Positions 8,013 to 33,452 of a DNA stretch of 33,452 nt are shown in pieces. Below the pieces are notes generated by a model. It was not told where the DNA came from. It was given only the letters and a program-made list of their open reading frames with translations, and ran no database searches. Location of the stretch: positions 1-33,452 of the forward strand of contig JASHNX010000187.1 in the NCBI GenBank assembly GCA_030041415.1. Reading direction: 5' to 3'. The DNA is from Candidatus Sulfotelmatobacter sp. (GTDB lineage Bacteria; Acidobacteriota; Terriglobia; Terriglobales; Acidobacteriaceae). A program made the translations under genes and the position numbers. The number at the start of each line of letters is the position of its first letter. The first letter of the stretch is position 1.

Positions 8013-9146
8013 CTAGGCTTCGACGCTCTCGCCCGATCGCTGGTGGCGGAGTTCGGAGAGAAAATCATCCTGCTGAAGTTGAGATCCTCGCCTCAACAGT
8101 TCAAGCAAGGGATCTTCCATTTCGTCGCCTGATTCTGCCGGTCGCTCAAATTCTTTCAAATCTGCAGTCAGGGCACGAGGCGAAATGCTCAACTCGAGCA
8201 TGGACTCCGGCGCGTTGCGCAGAAGGTTAATAACATTTTCCACCTGCGCGCGTTGTTCCGCGGTGCGCGAGGGGAACTCTACGCCCATTCCGTGCCCGGG
8301 ATGAGCGACGCGGACCATGCCGTCGGTGTGAACCTCCATATCGTCCGTGCGCAGACAGAGATCGACCATAGCGCGCTCGGGGAACGGCGACTCGCTTTCC
8401 ACATAGCAGCCGCCCAGACTTAAATCCGTCAGCTTGCAGTGAGGGACGGTCTCTTCCTGTTCTTCACCAAGCGCCACAACCGCAGCGCGCAGCCATTCGT
8501 GGAGCTGCGACTTAACGGATTCAGCCAAGTCGAGAAAGTGGACTCCAGTCAGACCGTTTGGATTGGCCCACGCGACTTGCCCGTTGGCGTGAACTTCGAA
8601 GTTAGCATCGGCGAGCTGAAAGCGAACATTGAGTTGCCCACCTTTCGCCTGGGGTTCGGCGGTGAGAAGTTCCATTCCGGTCTCGCTCAAGTCGATGAGA
8701 ATGCCCTCAACTTTGCGGGAGTCGGGAAGTGTCACGTCTACGGCCGCCTGCACCGGGACACGATGCGCCCGTCGTCGTTCGCGGTTCAACAATGCGGCTA
8801 CCGCACGCAGGCCAGCCTGAGCGGTCTCTTCCAAAAGCGGCTTATAAAGGATGAAGTGTGTTCCGCGGTTAAGGACATGGCGGGCTTTGGCAGACTCGGC
8901 CAGTAAAGCTACAGTAACGGGAGTCCGAGCCGAATTCAACCGGGTAGATTCCTGCAGAACGGCATCGGCTGAGGAAGCATCTTCGAAGTCGACAATGATT
9001 GCGTCAAAGCGCTGTTGCTGAAGGCGATCGATGGCGGTGGGAAGATCGCTGAATCGCTCCACTGCGATACCGAAAGCTGCCAGCACGCGGCCGAGGATGT
9101 CGCAAGCGCCGTCGTCGGTGGAAACCAATAGTGCCAGCAGGGTCAT
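8013..9146 (-). CDS. Response-regulator-like protein with two PilZ domains
   Basis: A 377-residue cytosolic signalling protein. Residues 1-118 form a receiver-like domain with acidic residues D11/D12, the phospho-acceptor position D53 (AIIVDFED) and K102 (LYKPL), so phosphorylation is possible. The first PilZ domain (about 122-222) has both c-di-GMP motifs, R125-xxx-R129 and DLSETG at 152-157. The second (about 232-312) keeps DLSLGG (241-246) but has no RxxxR before it, so it may be a structural or degenerate PilZ. A Glu/Arg-rich tail of about 60 residues follows. No DNA-binding or enzymatic output domain is present; output probably goes through protein contacts. The ATG has no clear ribosome-binding site and lies 30 bases after the stop of the coiled-coil gene, so both are probably one transcript. 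Confidence 0.85.
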   Translation of the reverse strand: MTLLALLVSTDDGACDILGRVLAAFGIAVERFSDLPTAIDRLQQQRFDAIIVDFEDASSADAVLQESTRLNSARTPVTVALLAESAKARHVLNRGTHFILYKPLLEETAQAGLRAVAALLNRERRRAHRVPVQAAVDVTLPDSRKVEGILIDLSETGMELLTAEPQAKGGQLNVRFQLADANFEVHANGQVAWANPNGLTGVHFLDLAESVKSQLHEWLRAAVVALGEEQEETVPHCKLTDLSLGGCYVESESPFPERAMVDLCLRTDDMEVHTDGMVRVAHPGHGMGVEFPSRTAEQRAQVENVINLLRNAPESMLELSISPRALTADLKEFERPAESGDEMEDPLLELLRRGSQLQQDDFLSELRHQRSGESVEA

Positions 9147-9176
9147 AAGTCGGTTTAGTGCGCGATCGAGAAGGAA

Positions 9177-9437
9177 TTAGGGCCAGCGGGGCGCGGAGGG
9201 TCGACTCGACTTCGAGTTGCTCCCACCGGACGCGGCAGAGGCGGCTTTGGCGGCGGCATCAGTGGCAGGCGCTTCTTCGCCGTCCATTAGGACAGCATTA
9301 TCGTCATCGTCATTCTCGGCGAGCAACGGCGCCACTTCACGGAGCTTTTCCGCGGCCTGCTGAAGCATCTCGATCTGCTTTCCCAATTGGGCATATTTCG
9401 TCTGCTTCTGCCGCAATACCTCATGAATATCCTTCAT
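9177..9437 (-). CDS. Small coiled-coil protein with acidic and Ser/Ala-rich tail
   Basis: An 86-residue hypothetical protein. Residues 1-40 form an amphipathic helix with heptad-like spacing (MKDIHEVLRQKQTKYAQLGK, then QIEMLQQAAEKLREVAPLLA). A run of acidic residues (ENDDDD, 41-46) and a low-complexity Ala/Ser/Gly tail ending RPSAPRWP follow. I recall similar small proteins as common in Acidobacteria but know of no function. A GGGGGAA ribosome-binding site lies just upstream of the ATG and a promoter is visible at 9454-9483. It precedes the REC-PilZ-PilZ gene by 30 bases, so it could be a partner of that protein; this is inference from position only. Confidence 0.7.
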   Translation of the reverse strand: MKDIHEVLRQKQTKYAQLGKQIEMLQQAAEKLREVAPLLAENDDDDNAVLMDGEEAPATDAAAKAASAASGGSNSKSSRPSAPRWP

Positions 9438-9453
9438 ACTTCCCCCTCTGGAA

Positions 9454-9483
9454 AATGTAAGGAGGCTTGCGGTTACGGGTCAA
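9454..9483 (-). promoter_or_regulatory. Promoter of the coiled-coil/REC-PilZ pair
   Basis: On the minus strand TTGACC (9483-9478), an 18-base spacer and TACATT (9459-9454) resemble sigma-70 boxes. The expected start is about 10 bases before the ATG at 9437, leaving just enough room for the GGGGGAA ribosome-binding site. Confidence 0.45.
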
Positions 9484-9542
9484 CGGTAATCCCCTCTCGG
9501 GCGTTACTGGGGTAATCTCAATTACGGAAGGAGACGAATGAA

Positions 9543-9567
9543 AAAGCCCCGCCTTCGGCGGGGCTTT
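9543..9567 (-). terminator. Rho-independent terminator of the PEP-CTERM gene
   Basis: An 11-bp perfect stem, AAAGCCCCGCC (9543-9553) with GGCGGGGCTTT (9557-9567), around a 3-base loop. It lies 20 bases after the stop at 9588. Read on the minus strand the stem is followed by a T5 tract (complement of 9541-9545), the classic layout for leftward transcription. Confidence 0.9.
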
Positions 9568-9587
9568 CGTCGGCCGAACGATTGGGC

Positions 9588-10229
9588 TCAGGGCTTAAAT
9601 TTCTTGCGAAAGATGCCTGCCAAGCCGAGCATACCGGTCCCGAGCAAGCCGAGAGTTCCTGGTTCGGGCGTAACGGTGATGACGCTGTTGCCGCTTCCCA
9701 CGCCGACCGATCCCGTGAATCCGTTCTTGCCGGTGTCAACGGTGATTTGGGTGGTGGCACCGTTCACCGCCAGGCCGTTGTACCACGTTCCCGAGATGGC
9801 ACCTGTGAGGGTGTAAAAGATTGAAGGGCTGACGCCAATTGTGCCGCTGGGAATCCAAGTGGTAGTGCCGGTGAAAGTGCCGCTGAAGATCACGCCGTTC
9901 GGCAGGCCGCCCGTTCCATTACCCATAATCACGAAAGTTCCGCCGCCGCCAAAGGTCCCGCCGTACAAGAGACTCCCCGAGGAGAGCGCGCCCGTGGTGA
10001 AGGCAACGCTACCGAGATTCGTTCCTTGGATAATGCCCATTCCATTGAAGCCCGTGACCTGGGTCAATGCCGAGCCGCTCAAAGTCAGGTTAATGGTACT
10101 TCCGGCAAGGCCAGTGGTGCCGCCGTTTGCAGTAAGTGTGCCGCCGGTGTTGGTAAAATCCACTTCATCCGCAAAAGCTACCAAGGGCAGAGTAAGGACG
10201 AGGAGGGCCAGTAACACGATCCGCTTCAT
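9588..10229 (-). CDS. PEP-CTERM exported protein
   Basis: A 213-residue secreted protein. It has a signal peptide (MKRIVLLALLVLTLPLVAFA, 1-20). A Gly/Thr/Ser-rich beta-type body with almost no charged residues follows. The C-terminus is a textbook PEP-CTERM sorting signal: PEPGTLGLLGTGMLGLAGIF followed by the basic RKKFKP. In known systems an exosortase (EpsH/XrtA family) cleaves at this signal during export and exopolysaccharide assembly; no exosortase is in this window. The frame could start 30 codons earlier, but AGGAG sits directly upstream of the ATG at 10227-10229 and the signal peptide begins there. A strong terminator follows. Confidence 0.92.
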   Translation of the reverse strand: MKRIVLLALLVLTLPLVAFADEVDFTNTGGTLTANGGTTGLAGSTINLTLSGSALTQVTGFNGMGIIQGTNLGSVAFTTGALSSGSLLYGGTFGGGGTFVIMGNGTGGLPNGVIFSGTFTGTTTWIPSGTIGVSPSIFYTLTGAISGTWYNGLAVNGATTQITVDTGKNGFTGSVGVGSGNSVITVTPEPGTLGLLGTGMLGLAGIFRKKFKP

Positions 10230-10499
10230 GTCGAACTCCTTTTGTCGCTTTACCGCTTGCACAAGGCCGTCTAGCTTGCGCAGTCTAGTGTAAGCCCAAA
10301 CCCGCGATTGCAACGGCAATTAGTTTCGCACAGGTACCGGACCAGTTGCCCGGAAAATGTGTCGAAGATTTCCACAAGAAGGCCGAAAACCGGCTGGAGA
10401 CGACCTTTCCGCACGGACCCCTAGCATAGGAAAAAGTTTGGTGACCGCGCGCGAATAGCCGAGCGGCAAAGGCCAGCCAAGCCGTGGAGGCAACAACTT

Positions 10500-10958
10500 C
10501 TAACCGGCCGCCGTGGTTTCGGATTCCGTGCCGATAATATTTCTGAGACGGCGCGAGAGGTTCGTAGCCAGGGACCGGTAAAAGCGCGAGCCCAGGTGAG
10601 GAAATAGCTCAAACAAACTTTGCAGGGTCGGCCGGTCGAGGTGGTAGGCCTCGATATTTTCATCGGCGACAACGTTGGCGCTGGCCGCGGTATCCTCAAG
10701 GAAGGACATTTCCCCGCAAACCTCGCCGGGACCAATCGTCCGCGTGGGCGCCGAACGCAGCTCCACTTTCGCCTTTCCCTTCAGCAGAATATATAGACCG
10801 TTGATCGCCTTGCCTTTTTTCACCAGAAAATCGCCCTTCTTAAACTGGACGCGGACGGCCTTATCCGCCAGCAAGTTCCAATCGTTGACGGTGAGGTATG
10901 TCAATCCATTTCTAGCCGCCAGCATAGTGGCAACTTCTCGTTCGATAACCTTGGACAT
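10500..10958 (-). CDS. Stand-alone cyclic-nucleotide-binding-fold protein
   Basis: A 152-residue protein formed by a single Crp-like sensor domain (about 20-125) and a short helix, with no helix-turn-helix. The beta-roll glycines are present (FKKGDFLVKKGKAINGLYILLKGKAKVE), as is the phosphate-binding cassette GEVCGEMSFLEDTAASANVVA (from 78). The arginine that contacts the cyclic phosphate in CRP (R82, before S-A) is replaced by alanine (A92), so classical cAMP or cGMP binding is doubtful. It may bind another ligand or act as a protein-interaction module. No clear ribosome-binding site precedes the ATG; a second ATG lies 11 codons in. It is probably monocistronic. Confidence 0.85.
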   Translation of the reverse strand: MSKVIEREVATMLAARNGLTYLTVNDWNLLADKAVRVQFKKGDFLVKKGKAINGLYILLKGKAKVELRSAPTRTIGPGEVCGEMSFLEDTAASANVVADENIEAYHLDRPTLQSLFELFPHLGSRFYRSLATNLSRRLRNIIGTESETTAAG

Positions 10959-11195
10959 GGGTGTGCGCGACCTGGACGCGGCAAGTCAAATCGAAAGTAA
11001 ACAGAGACAAACGAAGCAAACAACAGGGCAAGGTAAGGTTAGCAGAAAAAGGGCGAAGATGAGAATCGGATGCGGAAGAAAAGGAGCCTGCTCATTGCGT
11101 CATCCGATACGTGATCTGGCCAGTACCTTCGGCGTGTTGGCGGCGCTTCTCTAATGAGGGCTAACGCCCACATTTGTAGATGTCAACGGTCACCC

Positions 11196-12047
11196 TCACA
11201 TGGGCATTTTCAGAATTGCCGACGCAATGTCCTCAAGGTTGGTTTCCAGAGCAAAGTGTCCCGTGTCCAGAAGTGTGACAACTGCATTAGGCAGGTCTCG
11301 CTTGAATGCTTCCGCTCCCGGTGGAACGAAGAAGCTGTCGTTCTTGCCCCAAATGGCGAGCAACGGAGGCCGGTGGGTACGGAGGTACTGCTGGTATAGG
11401 GGATAGCGCTCGATATTGGCTTTGTAGTCAAGCTTGAGATCGACCTGCAGGTCCATCATGCCCGGGCGCGCCAGGAGTGCAGCATCGAGCCAGTAGGCTT
11501 CGGGTTCGATCTTCGAGACGTCCGGAACTCCCTGGAAGTACGCCTCGCGAACGCCATCCAGCGACATACGTTCTTTGAGCTCGTCGCGAATGGCCGCGGA
11601 TGGTTTCTTCCAGTAGGCGCGCAAAGGAGCCCACGGCCCCTCACCCAAGCCTTCTTCGTATGCGTTGCCGTTCTGCGAAATGATCGCGGTAATGCGGTCC
11701 GGATCGGCGACCGCAAGGTTGAACCCGATGGGCGCACCGTAGTCGAAGATGTACATGGCGAAGCGTCGCAATGCGAGCGCGTCCACGAACCCCTGGATGG
11801 TTTCCGTCAATTGGGCGAAGGTATAGCGATAATCTTTTCCATCCACTTTGGTAAAGCCAAATGAAGGCAGGTCAGGAGCAATCAGATGAAAGCGGTTCGC
11901 GAGCCACGGCATCAGGTGCCGAAAGTAGTGCGATGAGTTTGCGAAGCCGTGCAACAACAATAGAACTGGACTACCTTTGAGGCCAGCCTCTCGGTAGAAC
12001 ACGGTGACTGGGCCAATCTTCAGCGTGGAATGCCGGACCTCTGCCAC
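11196..12047 (-). CDS. Alpha/beta hydrolase, haloalkane dehalogenase/epoxide hydrolase-like
   Basis: A 283-residue cytosolic alpha/beta-fold hydrolase. The oxyanion-hole motif HGF is at 33-35. The nucleophile elbow is FDYGAPIG with D102, an aspartate as in haloalkane dehalogenases and epoxide hydrolases rather than the serine of esterases. The charge-relay acid is probably D237 (WGKNDSFF) and the catalytic histidine H264 (DTGHFALE). A helical cap domain lies at about 130-215. The true substrate cannot be read from sequence. Translation starts at a GTG (12045-12047) with GAGGAAG seven bases upstream. The tRNA-Arg gene lies upstream on the same strand, 160 bases away; no terminator is evident after the stop. 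Confidence 0.88.
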   Translation of the reverse strand: MAEVRHSTLKIGPVTVFYREAGLKGSPVLLLLHGFANSSHYFRHLMPWLANRFHLIAPDLPSFGFTKVDGKDYRYTFAQLTETIQGFVDALALRRFAMYIFDYGAPIGFNLAVADPDRITAIISQNGNAYEEGLGEGPWAPLRAYWKKPSAAIRDELKERMSLDGVREAYFQGVPDVSKIEPEAYWLDAALLARPGMMDLQVDLKLDYKANIERYPLYQQYLRTHRPPLLAIWGKNDSFFVPPGAEAFKRDLPNAVVTLLDTGHFALETNLEDIASAILKMPM

Positions 12048-12209
12048 GTCAATCTTCCTCTTCGAGTTTCGGAATGCGGTGACTGAAAAAAGATCGAACC
12101 TAGGCCGCGAGTCCAGTCACTCCTTCAACCACCGGCCTCCGAGTTTCGCTGGATCCAGTATGGGCGTTTGCCATCTGTTCTCACATCGCTTCGTGAGTGA
12201 TGGGATGAA

Positions 12210-12286
12210 TGGTGCGCCCGGACGGAGTCGAACCGCCAACCCCTAGCTTCGTAGGCTAGTGCTCTATCCAGTTGAGCTACGGGCGC
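12210..12286 (-). tRNA. tRNA-Arg (anticodon ACG)
   Basis: The minus strand reads as a complete 77-base cloverleaf. Acceptor arms are GCGCCCG and CGGGCGC, with discriminator A and an encoded CCA (12212-12210). The D-arm contains AGCTCAACTGGATAGAGC. The anticodon stem CTAGC/GCTAG encloses CTACGAA, giving anticodon ACG, whose A34 is normally edited to inosine to read CGU/CGC/CGA. The T-arm contains GGTTCGACTCC. Confidence 0.95.
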
Positions 12287-12320
12287 GGACTGCGCGACAG
12301 CGAGTGAGGCTCGCCCAAGA

Positions 12321-12326
12321 ATTATA
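12321..12326 (-). promoter_or_regulatory. -10 box of the tRNA-Arg gene
   Basis: A perfect TATAAT on the minus strand (12326-12321), 35 bases before the tRNA 5' end. No consensus -35 box is visible at 17 bases, so the promoter call rests on the -10 match and position. Confidence 0.45.
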
Positions 12327-12595
12327 ACGGATCGAATGGTAGCATGTGGCTGCGCCGGAAACATTTTTGGGAGGGTGTCGCGAGAAGGAATCGCATTCAG
12401 CCAAAAAGAGTAACGAGCCGCTTGAAATGTGTTCGTCGACATGCCGCGCGGTAACTAAGGTGTTCTCCCGAAGTAAAAGTTTCCGAGGTCTGAGAAATTC
12501 CTACAAGGCGCTGGCGCGAGGCAATCAATATTATGAGCCACTTAGAGAACGGCACGCGGTGTGCTGTATGAATTCCAGACGAAGTGGCGCGCAAC

Positions 12596-12642
12596 GGGGC
12601 GCTCCAAGAAGAACTTCGGCCAGAGGTTTTCTTGGACGCCCC
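12596..12642. other. Long inverted repeat (hairpin) in intergenic DNA
   Basis: The left arm GGGGCGCTCCAAGAA (12596-12610) pairs with TTCTTGGACGCCCC (12629-12642) over 14 base pairs with one bulged C, around an 18-base loop. A short TTT follows on the plus strand, then a second hairpin TTGCCC/GGGCAA (12650-12655, 12661-12666). No insertion-sequence ORF lies between the arms, so this looks like an RNA structure rather than a mobile-element end. Confidence 0.6.
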
Positions 12643-12682
12643 TTTGCATTTGCCCCCAAAGGGCAAGCTGCCAAGATCCTTT

Positions 12683-12753
12683 CCTCCGGTTCGTCGCTGA
12701 ACCCTCCGGTTCGTCGCTGAACCCTCCGGTTTGTCGCTGAACCCTCCGGTTTT
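12683..12753. repeat. Tandem 20-bp repeat, 3.5 copies, each a hairpin
   Basis: The unit CCTCCGGTTCGTCGCTGAAC recurs at 12683, 12703 and 12723, with a partial fourth copy at 12743. Each full copy contains the inverted repeat GGTTC-GTCGCT-GAACC (12688-12703, 12708-12723, 12728-12743). Copy 3 has GGTTT instead of GGTTC; on plus-strand RNA this still pairs as U-G, on minus-strand RNA it would be an A-C mismatch. The array ends 33 bases from the stop of the leftward 75-aa gene. Confidence 0.85.
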
Positions 12754-12785
12754 AAGCCATAAGCTATTTTCTTAGGCAGGTAATC

Positions 12786-13013
12786 TCAGGCAAGCGCAAC
12801 TTGGTCGCGCACATCGATTCCTGCCTGGCGCAAAAGGCGGGAAACCGCCGGCTCCTTGAGTCGGGAGGCGTCGAATGTGACTCTCACCGTGCGCCGCTTG
12901 TGGTCGAACTGCACCTGTTGAATGCCATAAACCTCGCGCATGCCGTCGATGGCGCGCAGTTCACTCTCGCCCGGGGTTGCCCCGTAACCGAAGACGATTT
13001 CTAGATAAGTCAT
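12786..13013 (-). CDS. Small ferredoxin-fold-like hypothetical protein
   Basis: A 75-residue protein. Predicted order is strand (TYLEIVFGY), helix (ESELRAIDGMREVYG), two strands (IQQVQFDHKRRTVRVTFDASRL) and helix (KEPAVSRLLRQAG), then a short tail. This is the beta-alpha-beta-beta-alpha pattern of small HMA/ACT-like domains. The metal-binding CxxC of HMA proteins is absent, so it is not a copper chaperone of the usual kind. I do not recognise a named family. The frame opens 43 codons upstream, but AGAGGA sits just before the ATG at 13011-13013 and the extension looks non-coding, so I prefer the short form. The dehydrogenase gene upstream ends 143 bases before this start. Confidence 0.7.
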   Translation of the reverse strand: MTYLEIVFGYGATPGESELRAIDGMREVYGIQQVQFDHKRRTVRVTFDASRLKEPAVSRLLRQAGIDVRDQVALA

Positions 13014-30512: not shown

Positions 30513-32444
30513 CTAGGCGCGTTGTGCTCTGGCTTTCGGTTGTGATGAGATCGGCGCGGAACCCGATTCCTGATCTGACAGCCGGTGTTGCCGTAGCACA
30601 TCGTCCCAGAAAGTGCTGTGCGGATCAATCGTTGAGATTCCGAGCTGACCGGCCATGGGAGTGTTTTCCTCTCCCAGCCAAACAACCATGAAGTCTTCTT
30701 GCCTGTTTTGGCGCGCGAGAGTCACCCTGGAACTGCGCTCGATTTTTTTATAGACATCTTTGAGCAGACATCCTTGCGGGCTGATGTTGACGGTCATCGC
30801 TTCCAGCTCAAAGATCTGGCCGTCGGAGTCAGTTGCAATGAGACGGACCGGAATAGCGACACTGACTCGGGAATCGCGGCGGTCGATCCTGAACTGTGCC
30901 ATCAGGCCGCTCAGTTCGGCGGCGATGGCGGCTAGTTCCTGTGCAGCCTTTTCGGAATCCTGTGCCCGGTTCAAGGTGCCGTCGGCCGCTTGGGCGACTC
31001 CGCCGATGTTTTCGGAAATGTCGCGCGCTCCATTGGCGGCTTCGTTGGCGTTACGTGTCATTTCGCTGGTAGTGGCGCTTTGCTCCTCGACTGCCGCCGC
31101 AATTGTGGCCGAGATGTCGTTGATCTGGTCGATGACACTGCTGATCGTTCCGATAGCGCTGACGGCACCTTTGGTATCTCCCTGAATGGCGCTGATTTTA
31201 CGGCTGATGTCCTCGGTGGCTTTGGCTGTCTGTTTGGCTAGTTCTTTGACTTCGTTCGCTACCACGGCGAAGCCTTTGCCGGCTTCTCCGGCGCGAGCGG
31301 CTTCGATCGTAGCATTCAGTGCCAGTAGATTAGTCTGCTGCGCGATGGTGGTGATCGCTTTGACCACAGCACCGATTTCCGCGCTGGAGTGCCCAAGTTT
31401 TGCCACCGTGGAATTGGCCTCTTCCGCGGTGCTTACGGCGGAAGAGGCTACCTTTGCAGCTTCATTTGCATTTATTGCGATGCTCTGGATGGTCGAAGTC
31501 ATTTCGCCAGCGCCGGTCGAGAGGCTTTGCAGATTCTGGCTGACCTGCTGCGTCAAGTTGGAAACTGCCTTGGCTTGCTCGGCGGTTTGACCGGAGTTGC
31601 CGGTGATGTGCTGGCTGGCCTCGAGCAACTGCTGGCTCGCCGAAGCCAGTTTGCGGGTATGAACAGCTACGCCTCGCAGAAGTCCCTGCAATTTATCCAT
31701 GAAGAGGTTGAACAATCGGCCGATTTCGCTTAGCTCGTCTTTGCCCAGGTTCCCGGAAATATCCAGGCGCTTTGTTACGTCCCCATCGCCTTCCGCGATG
31801 TCCTGGATCATGCCTGTCAGGCGCGCGAGCGACTGCGAGATGGCGCGTACCAGGGCCAGGCTGCCCAGGCACATCACAACCAGGGTAGAGATCACGAGAA
31901 GGTAAACGACAAACTGAATGTGGCGGGTGTGGGCGTTGGCTCTTTGCGCCTGATCATCGAGGGCCAGGCTAAGTTTGTCTTGATGTTCGGAAATCGCGCG
32001 CAAGAATTCTTCGAAAGCTGGATTGGCTTTTTCGATCATCAGTTGATGCGATTCGACGTTGTGCGCGTGGGCCACTAAGTCAATGACTCCAGCATCGGCC
32101 TGGGTGAGTTTGTCGAAAGCCGAGGCAATGTCGGAGCCAGTTCCCGCATCCTGCTGAATCTTCTCCCCCGCCTGCTTGATCAGCGAGTCATTCTGATTCA
32201 TCAGATCTTCAATAGCGTCTGGATCGCTCTGCTGAATCATCCTTTGGGTATTGCCTTGAATCTTGACCGCCATATCGAGCAGTTGAAAAGATGCCTGACT
32301 CTGAGCGCGCGAGCGGGAAGCCACCTCACTCGACAGCGACACCGATACGTGGACGAGACAAGACAATCCGAGGACAGCTGCCGCGGTGATGCCGACGGAG
32401 GCGGCGAGAGCCAGGGTCATGCGGCGCGCGATGCTCAGGTTCAT
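30513..32444 (-). CDS. Methyl-accepting chemotaxis protein with C-terminal PilZ domain
   Basis: A 643-residue transmembrane chemoreceptor. TM1 (about 10-34) and TM2 (about 176-198) enclose a helical periplasmic sensor of about 140 residues. A HAMP linker spans about 199-252. A long signalling coiled coil has its hairpin tip at about 365-405, with the highly conserved [21 protein letters not shown] and [15 protein letters not shown] stretches that bind CheA/CheW. Unusually, residues about 521-615 form a PilZ domain with R522-xxx-R526 and N553-x-S-x-x-G558, so c-di-GMP may bind at the receptor's cytoplasmic end. The frame opens 33 codons earlier, but GGAG precedes the ATG at 32442-32444 and TM1 follows directly. 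It lies 22 bases after the exported Cache-like gene. Confidence 0.95.
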
Positions 32445-32466
32445 AGCGTGTTCTCCTGCCCGCGGT

Positions 32467-33018
32467 TTAGCGAAGCTTGTCAGCCCGCAATCCGAAAACG
32501 ATGGAGCCAATGGGTTTTTTCCCGTCCAGAACGGGAAGGCCAACCTGGATCAATTGCCAGCCGGTGGAATCATCCAGCTTCACAGTGCCGATCCAGGTTT
32601 TGCCGCTCATAGGAACTTCGTGTTTGGGCATGCCTTCGTGAGTCCAATGCTCCGTCTTCGCGTCAAAGCCGACTTTGCCACCATCCGCACCTGAAACGAA
32701 AATCTTGGAAACCACATCGTCTTTCTGAGATTTCAGGTATCCCGAAAGAGAATTCTTGGCAATTGCGCGCACGAAGGGATCGAACAACGAAAGGCTGTGC
32801 CATTTCTCATTCGTCATGGCTTTTGCCTCCGGAGACGCCGGAGTTGAGTTGTAAGCTCTAACGGCGCTGACCACCTGAGAATTGTTGCTGATGCTTTCTA
32901 AGTGTTTGATTTCCGAATTCAGCTTCGCCTGTAGTTCCGGCGGCGCCTGCGCGGGCACGATGCCGGAGAATGAAAGCATAGCCAGAATGATCGAGCTTTT
33001 GAGTGTCATAGGGCGCAC
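32467..33018 (-). CDS. Exported single-domain PDC/Cache-like sensor protein
   Basis: A 183-residue protein with a signal peptide (about 4-24, [22 protein letters not shown]). A helix ([20 protein letters not shown]) and a PDC/Cache-like alpha-beta domain follow. The typical late segment is [21 protein letters not shown], then [25 protein letters not shown]. It has no second membrane segment or output domain, so it probably works in the periplasm, perhaps as a ligand-binding partner of the chemoreceptor encoded 22 bases downstream. The start is GTG at 33016-33018 (GAGG eight bases upstream) or ATG at 33007-33009. A FliA-like promoter lies about 50 bases upstream. Confidence 0.8.
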
Positions 33019-33066
33019 GTTTGAGCCTCGGGGTTTGAAGTAAGTGATGGTTATCCCTGCATACCA

Positions 33067-33093
33067 ATATCGGCATGGGGACGATGAGCATTA
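33067..33093 (-). promoter_or_regulatory. Candidate sigma-28 (FliA) promoter
   Basis: On the minus strand TAAT (33093-33090), a 15-base spacer, and GCCGATAT (33074-33067). The motility sigma factor's consensus is TAAA-N15-GCCGATAA, so this matches three of four and seven of eight positions with exact spacing. It is correctly placed for the Cache-like/chemoreceptor pair. Confidence 0.55.
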
Positions 33094-33195
33094 CCGATTG
33101 CGTGCCGGGATCATCGAGCCGTTTTGGAGGTGGTTCCGTTCTGCTCAATCACCGGAATAAGTTTGAAAAGTACGGTAGAATGTGCACTTCAACCC

Positions 33196-33452
33196 ATGAG
33201 GCGAGTTCTCCATTCACGCTTTTTATCCCGGCGATTGGGACCGCTGGAGTTGCGCATGCTGGATGGCCTGTGGGCAAGGGGAAGCGCCACGGTTCGTGAG
33301 CTGCTGGAAACTGATCACTCCGATTTGGCCTATACGACTTTGATGACGACGCTTGACCGCCTCTTCAAAAAAGGGCTGCTCACCCGCACCGAGGAGGGCA
33401 GGGCGTTTCGCTATGCTCCACGCATGAGCCGCGAGGAACTGCATCGCGAAGC
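33196..33452 (+). CDS. BlaI/MecI/CopY-family repressor, 3' end cut by window edge
   Basis: A frame of 85 complete codons runs from the ATG at 33196 to the right edge without a stop. It shows the winged-helix domain of the penicillinase-repressor family: LGPLELRMLDGLWARGSATVRELLET, AYTTLMTTLDRLFKKGLLTRTEEGRAFRYAPRMSREEL. The YTTLMTTLDRLFKKGLL recognition helix region is the hallmark. Such repressors are often paired with a BlaR1/M56-type membrane peptidase downstream, which would lie outside the window. It is divergent from the Cache-like gene. No clear ribosome-binding site precedes the ATG; upstream TAGAAT (33176-33181) could be a -10 box with a very short leader. Confidence 0.9.
   Translation, partial: MRRVLHSRFLSRRLGPLELRMLDGLWARGSATVRELLETDHSDLAYTTLMTTLDRLFKKGLLTRTEEGRAFRYAPRMSREELHRE

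What the first reader, a model, noticed from the sequence alone, without database searches (positions are those of the whole stretch)
32467..33093. FliA-like promoter driving an exported Cache-like protein and its chemoreceptor
A TAAT-N15-GCCGATAT site precedes a two-gene unit: a soluble periplasmic sensor domain and a chemoreceptor 22 bases later. The receptor's own periplasmic part is helical, so a separate ligand-binding subunit is plausible. This would be a split-sensor chemoreceptor system.
Basis: partly seen in the sequence, partly recalled or inferred. Interest (0 to 1): 0.6.

Follow-up and report, generated by a model that had tools for sequence, protein, structure and literature searches.

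The report
Detached Cache sensor paired with chemoreceptor
A soil bacterium exports a small ligand-sensing protein and makes, from the very next gene, a chemotaxis receptor that seems to rely on it, so the sensing part of the receptor appears to have become a separate protein.

Summary
On the minus strand, TAAT-N15-GCCGATAT (33093-33067) precedes a signal-peptide protein (ATG 33009, stop 32467) and, 22 bases on, a chemoreceptor (32444-30513). By its relatives the window is from an Acidobacteriota MAG near Candidatus Sulfotelmatobacter.

The exported protein models as a Cache domain (pLDDT 87; VIA-align Z 13.2 to DctB), the receptor's periplasmic part as a four-helix bundle. The two are co-inherited: the same 6 of 41 genus genomes and the same 4 of 200 family genomes hold both, and 10 of 10 close sensor genes have the receptor next to them. 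Receptor signalling domains were exchanged while sensor, bundle and HAMP stayed together.

The sigma-28 site is weak alone (10/12; 42 of 1000 shuffles reach it) but 12/12 upstream of three orthologues. In one of these the pair is followed by CheW and CheA beside motA/motB, on a contig with a flagellar cluster. Caveat: FliA and FlhA were not found in this MAG, although FlgM and other flagellar genes were.

Best reading: a split chemoreceptor in which a soluble Cache protein, perhaps carboxylate-binding, signals through a four-helix-bundle receptor. Docking and ligand are inferred. A new variant of binding-protein-assisted chemoreception.

The parts
33067..33093 (-). sigma-28 (FliA)-like promoter: -35 TAAT 33093-33090, 15-base spacer, -10 GCCGATAT 33074-33067
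   Evidence: equivalent sites upstream of orthologous pairs, 12/12 in three of them
32467..33009 (-). exported Cache-like sensor gene (180 aa from ATG 33009; 183 aa if GTG 33018 is used), P0001
32944..33009 (-). signal peptide [22 protein letters not shown], by eye; A-x-A cleavage before PPEL
   Evidence: read from the sequence, no predictor run
32470..32943 (-). mature Cache domain; ends at the C-terminal strand/helix with no second transmembrane helix
   Evidence: model m2f7fe99f2aef, pLDDT 87; VIA-align Z 13.2, rmsd 3.1, 127 residues to DctB 3by9_B
32445..32466 (-). 22-base intergenic spacer with AGGAG (32457-32453), consistent with one transcript
30513..32444 (-). methyl-accepting chemoreceptor, 643 aa, P0002
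   Evidence: MCPsignal 102.9 bits, HAMP 35.7 bits
31911..32357 (-). receptor periplasmic region (residues 30-178), four-helix bundle, co-inherited with the sensor
31686..31853 (-). HAMP domain (residues 198-253)
30885..31661 (-). cytoplasmic signalling domain (residues 262-520), the shorter of two types found among the family's orthologues (7 residues fewer on each arm)
30585..30884 (-). C-terminal PilZ-like tail (RRDSR...NISPQG); weak match
   Evidence: PilZ 13.0 bits here, 18.8 bits in G023, both under the 22.5 cut-off; no PilZ match at E up to 0.5 for the same tail in G024 and G029; motif recalled

Best explanation
A split chemoreceptor. The first gene makes a soluble periplasmic Cache domain, in effect a receptor's ligand-binding domain cut free of its membrane helices. 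The second makes a chemoreceptor whose periplasmic part is a plain four-helix bundle. The ligand, most likely a small carboxylate, binds the Cache protein. The loaded (or empty) Cache protein docks on the bundle, and the signal passes through HAMP to the CheA/CheW array. Transcription starts at a sigma-28 promoter, so the pair is made with the late flagellar genes. Shown: the two genes, their folds by model, co-inheritance, a conserved promoter sequence, and linkage to CheW-CheA in one orthologue. Inferred: docking, ligand, direction of the response, and use of FliA in this organism.
For: Co-occurrence: sensor in 6 of 41 genus genomes and the receptor periplasmic profile in exactly the same 6; 4 of 200 family genomes and exactly the same 4. 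Adjacent in 10 of 10 close sensor loci (9; G259). The Cache model matches DctB, WalK, KinD, Mlp24 and CitA at Z 11.6-13.2 (Foldseek best E 6e-6, KinD). Pfam, at E up to 5: sCache_3_2 in 3 of 9 members, best 1.4e-4. The receptor bundle matches the MCP2201 LBD (Z 15.3, 2.2 A, 132 residues); TorS and LytS chains, some solved with their binding proteins TorT and XylFII, score Z 13.8-15.1. G028 and G076 share 84% (sensor), 72% (bundle) and 88% (HAMP) but only 33% of the signalling domain, whereas G076's signalling domain is 63-65% identical to the window clade's. Trees agree: G028 and G076 are sisters in sensor+bundle+HAMP (support 1.000), but in the signalling domain G028 goes with G191 (0.958) and G076 with the window's clade (split 1.000). 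So the sensor follows the periplasmic part, not the output part. The sensor is more conserved than the bundle in 45 of 45 locus pairs, as expected if it carries the ligand site. Distance correlation with the sensor: bundle r=0.94, HAMP 0.79, signalling 0.73 over 10 loci. G191: sensor-receptor-CheW-CheA on one strand, MotA/MotB diverging, flagellar cluster on the same contig. sigma-28 sites. Ligand hint: a transporter beside the pair in G028 passes the oxalate/formate antiporter model (480 bits, cut-off 335) and the L-lactate model (328, cut-off 320); a partial one in G076 is under cut-off (198).
Against: No physical interaction or ligand shown. P0001 alone has no Pfam match, and searches of PDB sequences gave nothing meaningful. 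Foldseek TM-scores of the sensor model are modest (0.30-0.51 by query length in the rows shown). For the bundle Foldseek has no match at E <= 0.001 (best 1.5e-3), and unrelated helical bundles (talin, catenin, designed proteins) also score Z 12-13.7. FliA over cut-off and FlhA were not found in 7 of the 10 pair-bearing genomes: G000, G024, G023, G029, G009, G076 and G259. G259 keeps the pair without a convincing sigma-28 site. Two remote sensor relatives (G495, G271; 27 and 23% identity) have no chemoreceptor beside them that I could see. All distance correlations, also that with the signalling domain, beat nearly all permutations, and without G259 HAMP (0.61) correlates less than signalling (0.70), so they reflect shared ancestry as well as coupling. 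Four-helix-bundle domains such as that of MCP2201 have been solved with ligands bound directly (titles), so the bundle may have its own ligand.
Confidence: 0.62

Rival explanations
1. The receptor's own four-helix bundle binds the ligand directly, as in Tar or MCP2201. The Cache protein only modulates it, for instance by buffering or delivering ligand, or by sensing a second compound.
For: The best structural matches of the bundle are receptors solved with ligand bound (MCP2201 with citrate or malate, PcaY_PP).
Against: The bundle profile was found in no genome without the sensor in the two samples searched, and the bundle is less conserved than the sensor in 45 of 45 locus pairs.
Confidence: 0.22
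2. The exported protein is co-transcribed with the receptor but has an unrelated periplasmic task; the linkage is an operon of convenience.
For: No interaction was tested; two remote homologues stand without a chemoreceptor beside them that I could see.
Against: Co-occurrence with the receptor's periplasmic domain that persisted through exchange of the receptor's output domain; a Cache fold, a known chemosensory module.
Confidence: 0.1
3. In the window's own lineage the site is a relic: FliA and most of the flagellum have been lost, and the pair is now expressed by another promoter and serves a non-flagellar output, perhaps tied to the PilZ-like tail.
For: FliA and FlhA not found in G000, G024, G023, G029 and G009. 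The site is 12/12 in G191 and G205 (FliA found) but 10, 9 and 8/12 in the window's clade. That clade has the other signalling-domain type, and the tail is seen in 4 of its 5 members (the fifth is cut by a contig end).
Against: G028, with FliA found, also has only 10/12, and G076, where FliA was not found, has 12/12. FlgM with sigma-28 sites and other flagellar genes persist in G000. The -10 core GCCGAT is kept at all five loci of the clade. Part of a MAG may simply be missing.
Confidence: 0.35

Closest known systems
Binding-protein-assisted chemoreceptors (E. coli receptors with sugar- or dipeptide-binding proteins; CtpL-PstS; LsrB-Tsr), PMC6321045 passages and section 6.1 read
   Same: A soluble periplasmic protein carries the ligand and acts on a receptor; the E. 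coli receptors have four-helix-bundle ligand-binding domains
   Different: Here the soluble part models as a Cache domain and is encoded directly upstream of its receptor; the known examples named there use ligand-binding proteins of other kinds (periplasmic-binding-protein fold, as I recall)
TorT-TorS and XylFII-LytS (PDB titles; PMC6321045 section 6.1)
   Same: Soluble periplasmic ligand binder acting through a helical periplasmic domain of a sensor; these chains are among the receptor model's best matches
   Different: Those are histidine kinases with periplasmic-binding-protein partners (recalled); this is a chemoreceptor with a Cache partner
Stand-alone Cache gene predicted in one operon with a ligand-gated ion channel homologue in Rhodopseudomonas (PMC549065, passages read)
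   Same: A separate Cache protein proposed to cooperate with a membrane receptor encoded beside it
   Different: The partner is a channel homologue and one genome is named; here the partner is a chemoreceptor and the pairing is tested across genomes
CetA/CetB and CetA2/CetB2 bipartite aerotaxis receptors (PMC2628428 listing with start of abstract; PMC12442639 abstract and passages)
   Same: One receptor made of two proteins encoded by a gene pair
   Different: The separate sensor there is an FAD-binding protein with a PAS domain (cytoplasmic as I recall); here it is an exported Cache protein
Cache-domain chemoreceptors and kinases (DctB, KinD, CitA, Mlp24, Tlp3)
   Same: Same fold as the exported protein
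   Different: In those the Cache domain is part of the membrane receptor itself (recalled)

Membership tests
Cache superfamily (sCache_3 / distal dCache_1 type) | Long N-terminal helix followed by a PAS-like core sheet | tested here: met
   secondary structure; VIA-align Z 13.2, rmsd 3.1, 127 residues to DctB; Foldseek E 6e-6 to KinD with TM-score 0.42 by query
Cache superfamily (sCache_3 / distal dCache_1 type) | Sequence match to a Cache profile | tested here: inconclusive
   P0001 none; at E up to 5, sCache_3_2 in 3 of 9 members (best 1.4e-4), dCache_1 (0.0048) and sCache_3_3 (0.028) in 1 each; profile A1 finds the periplasmic part of 371-aa proteins in G272 and G295 and a like hit in G260 (E 3.7e-5 to 1.4e-4)
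Cache superfamily (sCache_3 / distal dCache_1 type) | Extracytoplasmic location | tested here: inconclusive
   signal peptide in the nine close homologues by eye only (A-x-A end, or G-x-A in G028 and G076); no predictor run
Binding-protein-assisted chemoreceptor | Soluble exported partner encoded apart from the receptor | tested here: met
   separate ORF; signal peptide and absence of a second transmembrane helix by eye
Binding-protein-assisted chemoreceptor | Partner is a solute-binding protein of periplasmic-binding-protein fold | tested here: not met
   the model matches Cache domains
Binding-protein-assisted chemoreceptor | Physical docking of the loaded partner on the receptor | not testable with these tools
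   no complex prediction offered; co-inheritance only
Four-helix-bundle chemoreceptor | Two transmembrane helices flanking a four-helix periplasmic bundle, then HAMP and MCP signalling domain | tested here: met
   helices 3-71, 75-98, 104-125, 129-199 (mean pLDDT 79, pTM 0.58); MCP2201 Z 15.3; HAMP and MCPsignal over cut-off; no Pfam receptor-domain match of the bundle itself
sigma-28 (FliA) regulon member | TAAA-N15/16-GCCGATAA promoter conserved in orthologues | tested here: met
   12/12 in 3, 10 in 4 (window included), 9 in 1, 8 in 2 (one of them G259) of 10 loci; consensus recalled
sigma-28 (FliA) regulon member | FliA encoded in the same genome | tested here: inconclusive
   none over cut-off in G000 (best 111 bits, a 567-residue frame that I take for RpoD), but FlgM with sigma-28 sites is present and the MAG is 95.6% complete
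PilZ (c-di-GMP binding) chemoreceptor | PilZ domain over cut-off | tested here: not met
   13.0 bits here, 18.8 in G023, no match at E up to 0.5 in G024 and G029; cut-off 22.5

The most novel reading that the evidence does not exclude
A chemoreceptor whose ligand-binding Cache domain has become an obligate separate subunit acting on a ligandless four-helix bundle. This sensing half (sensor, bundle, HAMP) has been re-plugged onto different cytoplasmic signalling domains of different arm length during evolution, in the window's lineage onto one with a c-di-GMP-receptor-like tail, while flagellar genes were being lost.
Probability: 0.4. Interest if true: 0.68.

Novelty: new variant of a known kind. 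Interest (0 to 1): 0.55.

Why it matters
[quoted passage not shown] A natural pair in which the Cache domain is a free protein would show how far ligand recognition and signalling can be separated. It would also give a two-component handle for testing how a Cache domain drives a receptor: add or remove the sensor with the receptor unchanged. The exchange of signalling domains among orthologues is a natural experiment on where the modular joint lies.

Tried and rejected
Early on I took the window's genome and its closest pair-bearing relatives to be without flagella, because FliA and FlhA were not found (notes). A rod/hook search and the contigs it named showed FlgF-, FlgG-, FlgA-, FlgH-, FlgI-, FlgK-, FlgL- and FliD-like genes and FlgM, so I dropped that reading; whether fliA and flhA are lost or only missing from the assemblies stays open. 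Names of flagellar genes are by eye except FlgM (Pfam) and the rod/hook matches.

A relative of the sensor in viral contigs: none by the patterns used. Known RNA in the window at gathering score: only two tRNAs. Is the receptor bundle a degenerate Cache? hhalign gives probability 0.3%. Sequence relatives in the PDB: none for P0001 up to E 10; for profile A2 four matches, best E 0.51; for profile A3 eight matches up to E 1, best 1.5e-5 over 27 residues of a kinesin-light-chain construct, which I take for helix composition. The scan of named genomes returned eight loci, the same as the other eight in the family already found, all from records titled as Acidobacteriota groups; it used only two peptide patterns and did not return G259, so remoter relatives are missed by it.

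The divergent BlaI/M56-like genes (by eye) beside the pair occur in the window (BlaI only, the window ends) and G024; I did not see them at the other loci listed, so they were not counted as part of the system. A carboxylate ligand is only a hint: the antiporter lies beside the pair in 2 of 10 loci, and those two are sister loci.

Print: six library searches looked for a free Cache partner of a receptor, and one used an annotation name (no hit). Of the 25 papers I looked at passages of three (PMC549065, PMC3447947, and PMC8846402, the last); the rest I saw as a listing. The one stand-alone Cache gene that I saw described in an operon with a receptor is the Rhodopseudomonas case of PMC549065. 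Most subscription papers and preprints are not in that library.

Full report
What is there. On the minus strand, TAAT-N15-GCCGATAT (33093-33067) lies before an ORF with a signal peptide (ATG 33009 or GTG 33018, stop 32467); 22 bases after its stop, with AGGAG in between, starts a 643-residue chemoreceptor (32444-30513). The window is contig C293 of a 4.8-Mb MAG, 95.6% complete. The named relatives carrying the gene are Candidatus Sulfotelmatobacter and other Acidobacteriota MAGs.

The exported protein. P0001 has no Pfam match on its own. Of nine close orthologues scanned at E up to 5, three match sCache_3_2 (best E 1.4e-4) and one each matches dCache_1 and sCache_3_3. A profile of the nine finds the periplasmic part of 371-residue proteins in two distant Acidobacteriota and a similar hit in a third, at E 3.7e-5 to 1.4e-4. 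The AlphaFold2 model (12 sequences, mean pLDDT 87) matches Cache domains: DctB Z 13.2 (rmsd 3.1, 127 residues), WalK 12.2, KinD 12.2, Mlp24 11.9, CitA 11.6; Foldseek gives E 6e-6 to KinD, with modest TM-scores. By their titles the rows shown are mostly sensor domains of kinases and chemoreceptors or biosensors made from binding domains. The protein ends where a Cache receptor would enter its second membrane helix, so it looks like a Cache sensor domain with the membrane parts removed (inference from the sequence).

The receptor. Residues 1-200 model as helices 3-71, 75-98, 104-125 and 129-199 (mean pLDDT 79, pTM 0.58). The closest folds are MCP2201 (Z 15.3, rmsd 2.2, 132 residues) and TorS, NarQ and LytS sensor domains; talin, catenin and designed bundles score Z 12-13.7, and Foldseek has no match at E <= 0.001. 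So this shows arrangement, not kinship. HAMP and MCPsignal are clear; the C-terminal tail resembles PilZ but is under its cut-off in the window and G023, and unmatched in G024 and G029.

Co-inheritance. The sensor is found in 6 of 41 genomes of the genus and the receptor's periplasmic profile in exactly the same 6. In a sample of 200 genomes of the family the sensor is in 4 and the receptor profile in exactly the same 4; the window's genome and at least some others are in both samples. In the nine loci that result, and in G259 of another family, the receptor gene follows the sensor gene directly: 10 of 10. Two remote homologues (G495, G271; 27 and 23% identity) have no chemoreceptor that I could see beside them.

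What stays together and what is exchanged. G028 and G076 share 84% of the sensor, 72% of the periplasmic bundle and 88% of HAMP, but 33% of the signalling domain. G076's signalling domain is instead 63-65% identical to that of the window's clade, whose bundle is only 43-49% identical to G076's. Trees bear this out: sensor+bundle+HAMP put G028 and G076 together (support 1.000), whereas the signalling domain puts G028 with G191 (0.958) and splits G076 plus the window's clade from the rest (1.000; G009 left out as truncated). The two types differ by seven residues on each arm of the hairpin. With G028 and G076 as sisters, parsimony needs at least two changes of signalling type, while the sensor stayed with the periplasmic half. 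The sensor is more conserved than the bundle in 45 of 45 locus pairs. Distances of the sensor correlate best with those of the bundle (r 0.94, against 0.79 for HAMP and 0.73 for signalling residues 262-430; without G259 0.90, 0.61 and 0.70), though all exceed nearly all permutations because the loci share ancestry.

The promoter. Alone it is weak: 10 of 12 positions, reached by 42 of 1000 shuffles of the 250-base upstream region, with 6 genome-wide matches against 4 for a control pattern. Comparison changes that. G205, G076 and G191 have 12 of 12 (0 of 1000 shuffles each); G028, G023 and G024 have 10 (8, 27 and 65 of 1000); G009 has 9 (339) and G029 8 (841), which would not stand out alone; all lie 46-148 bases before the start. 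G259 has none worth the name. In G191 the pair is followed on the same strand by CheW and CheA, with MotA and MotB diverging from it, on a contig that also holds a flagellar cluster with FliA and FlhA. This is the clearest sign that the pair belongs to flagellar chemotaxis.

The FliA question. Of the 10 pair-bearing genomes, FliA over cut-off and FlhA are found in G028, G205 and G191 but not in G000, G024, G023, G029, G009, G076 (53% complete) or G259. Yet G000 has FlgM (50.8 bits) with sigma-28-like sites before it and several hook, rod and filament genes; rod/hook matches are also in G024, G029 and G009, but not in G023, G076 or G259. Either the cluster with fliA and flhA is missing from these MAGs or it has been lost in this lineage. 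The weaker sites of the window's clade would fit loss, but G028 has FliA and also only 10/12; the kept GCCGAT core and the FlgM sites would fit continued use. I cannot decide this here.

How it most likely works. Ligand, probably a small carboxylate, binds the free Cache protein, which docks on the four-helix bundle and sets CheA activity through HAMP. The ligand guess rests on the fold relatives (dicarboxylate, pyruvate and citrate sensors by title, but amino-acid sensors too) and on a transporter beside the pair in G028 that passes both the oxalate/formate antiporter and the L-lactate models, with a partial one under cut-off in G076. Docking and ligand are inference.

Known or new. Soluble binding proteins that stimulate chemoreceptors are well known, also for four-helix-bundle receptors (PMC6321045 section 6.1), and bipartite receptors with a separate PAS protein exist (CetA/CetB; PMC12442639 abstract and passages). 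A stand-alone Cache gene beside a channel-type receptor was noted in Rhodopseudomonas (PMC549065 passages). I saw no report of a free Cache protein as partner of a chemoreceptor in the listings, which cover open-licence papers only and of which I opened few. I call it a new variant of a known kind.

Noticed in passing
L120 (G000:C117) 850-1324 and L119 (G000:C101) 8552-12921: The window's genome has FlgM with sigma-28-like sites before it and FlgF/G/A/H/I-like genes, while no FliA over cut-off and no FlhA were found in the assembly. G024 (L124) and G009 (L122) have by eye the same flgM-like gene with such a site, and also no FliA or FlhA found.
   Followed up: partly
L008, L009, L010 and window 30585-30884: In 4 of the 5 receptors of the window's clade (the fifth is cut by a contig end) a tail of about 125 residues follows the signalling domain, PilZ-like by weak matches in two of them; the receptors of G028, G205, G076 and G191 have only 24-50 residues there.
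   Followed up: partly
L012 and L018: Sister loci G028 and G076 keep the same sensor, periplasmic bundle and HAMP but carry signalling domains of different types (33% identity) differing by seven residues per arm.
   Followed up: yes
L012 10228-11574 and L018 1-606: Oxalate/formate (or lactate) antiporter family genes lie downstream of the pair, and a second MFS transporter upstream, in G028 and G076; the one in G076 is cut by the contig start.
   Followed up: partly
L019 3948-10941: In G191 the pair is followed by CheW and CheA genes, with MotA and MotB diverging upstream; CheA matches a c-di-GMP-binding motif model of NCBIfam (41.7 bits, cut-off 38).
   Followed up: no
window 33124-33450: A BlaI/MecI-like regulator diverges from the pair; in G024 it is followed by an M56-peptidase-like gene. 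Names by eye.
   Followed up: no
G013:C10:93157 and G040:C95:28960: Two genomes of the genus rated 100% complete (G040 with 6% contamination) have FliA over cut-off but no FlhA match; G013 also has no rod/hook match, G040 has one.
   Followed up: no
L045 8424-14133 and L047 5188-12829: The Pfam signalling-domain search found only two other chemoreceptors in the window's genome, each near CheA- and CheR-like genes (by eye); neither has a signalling domain close to that of the window's receptor (29 and 28% identity).
   Followed up: no
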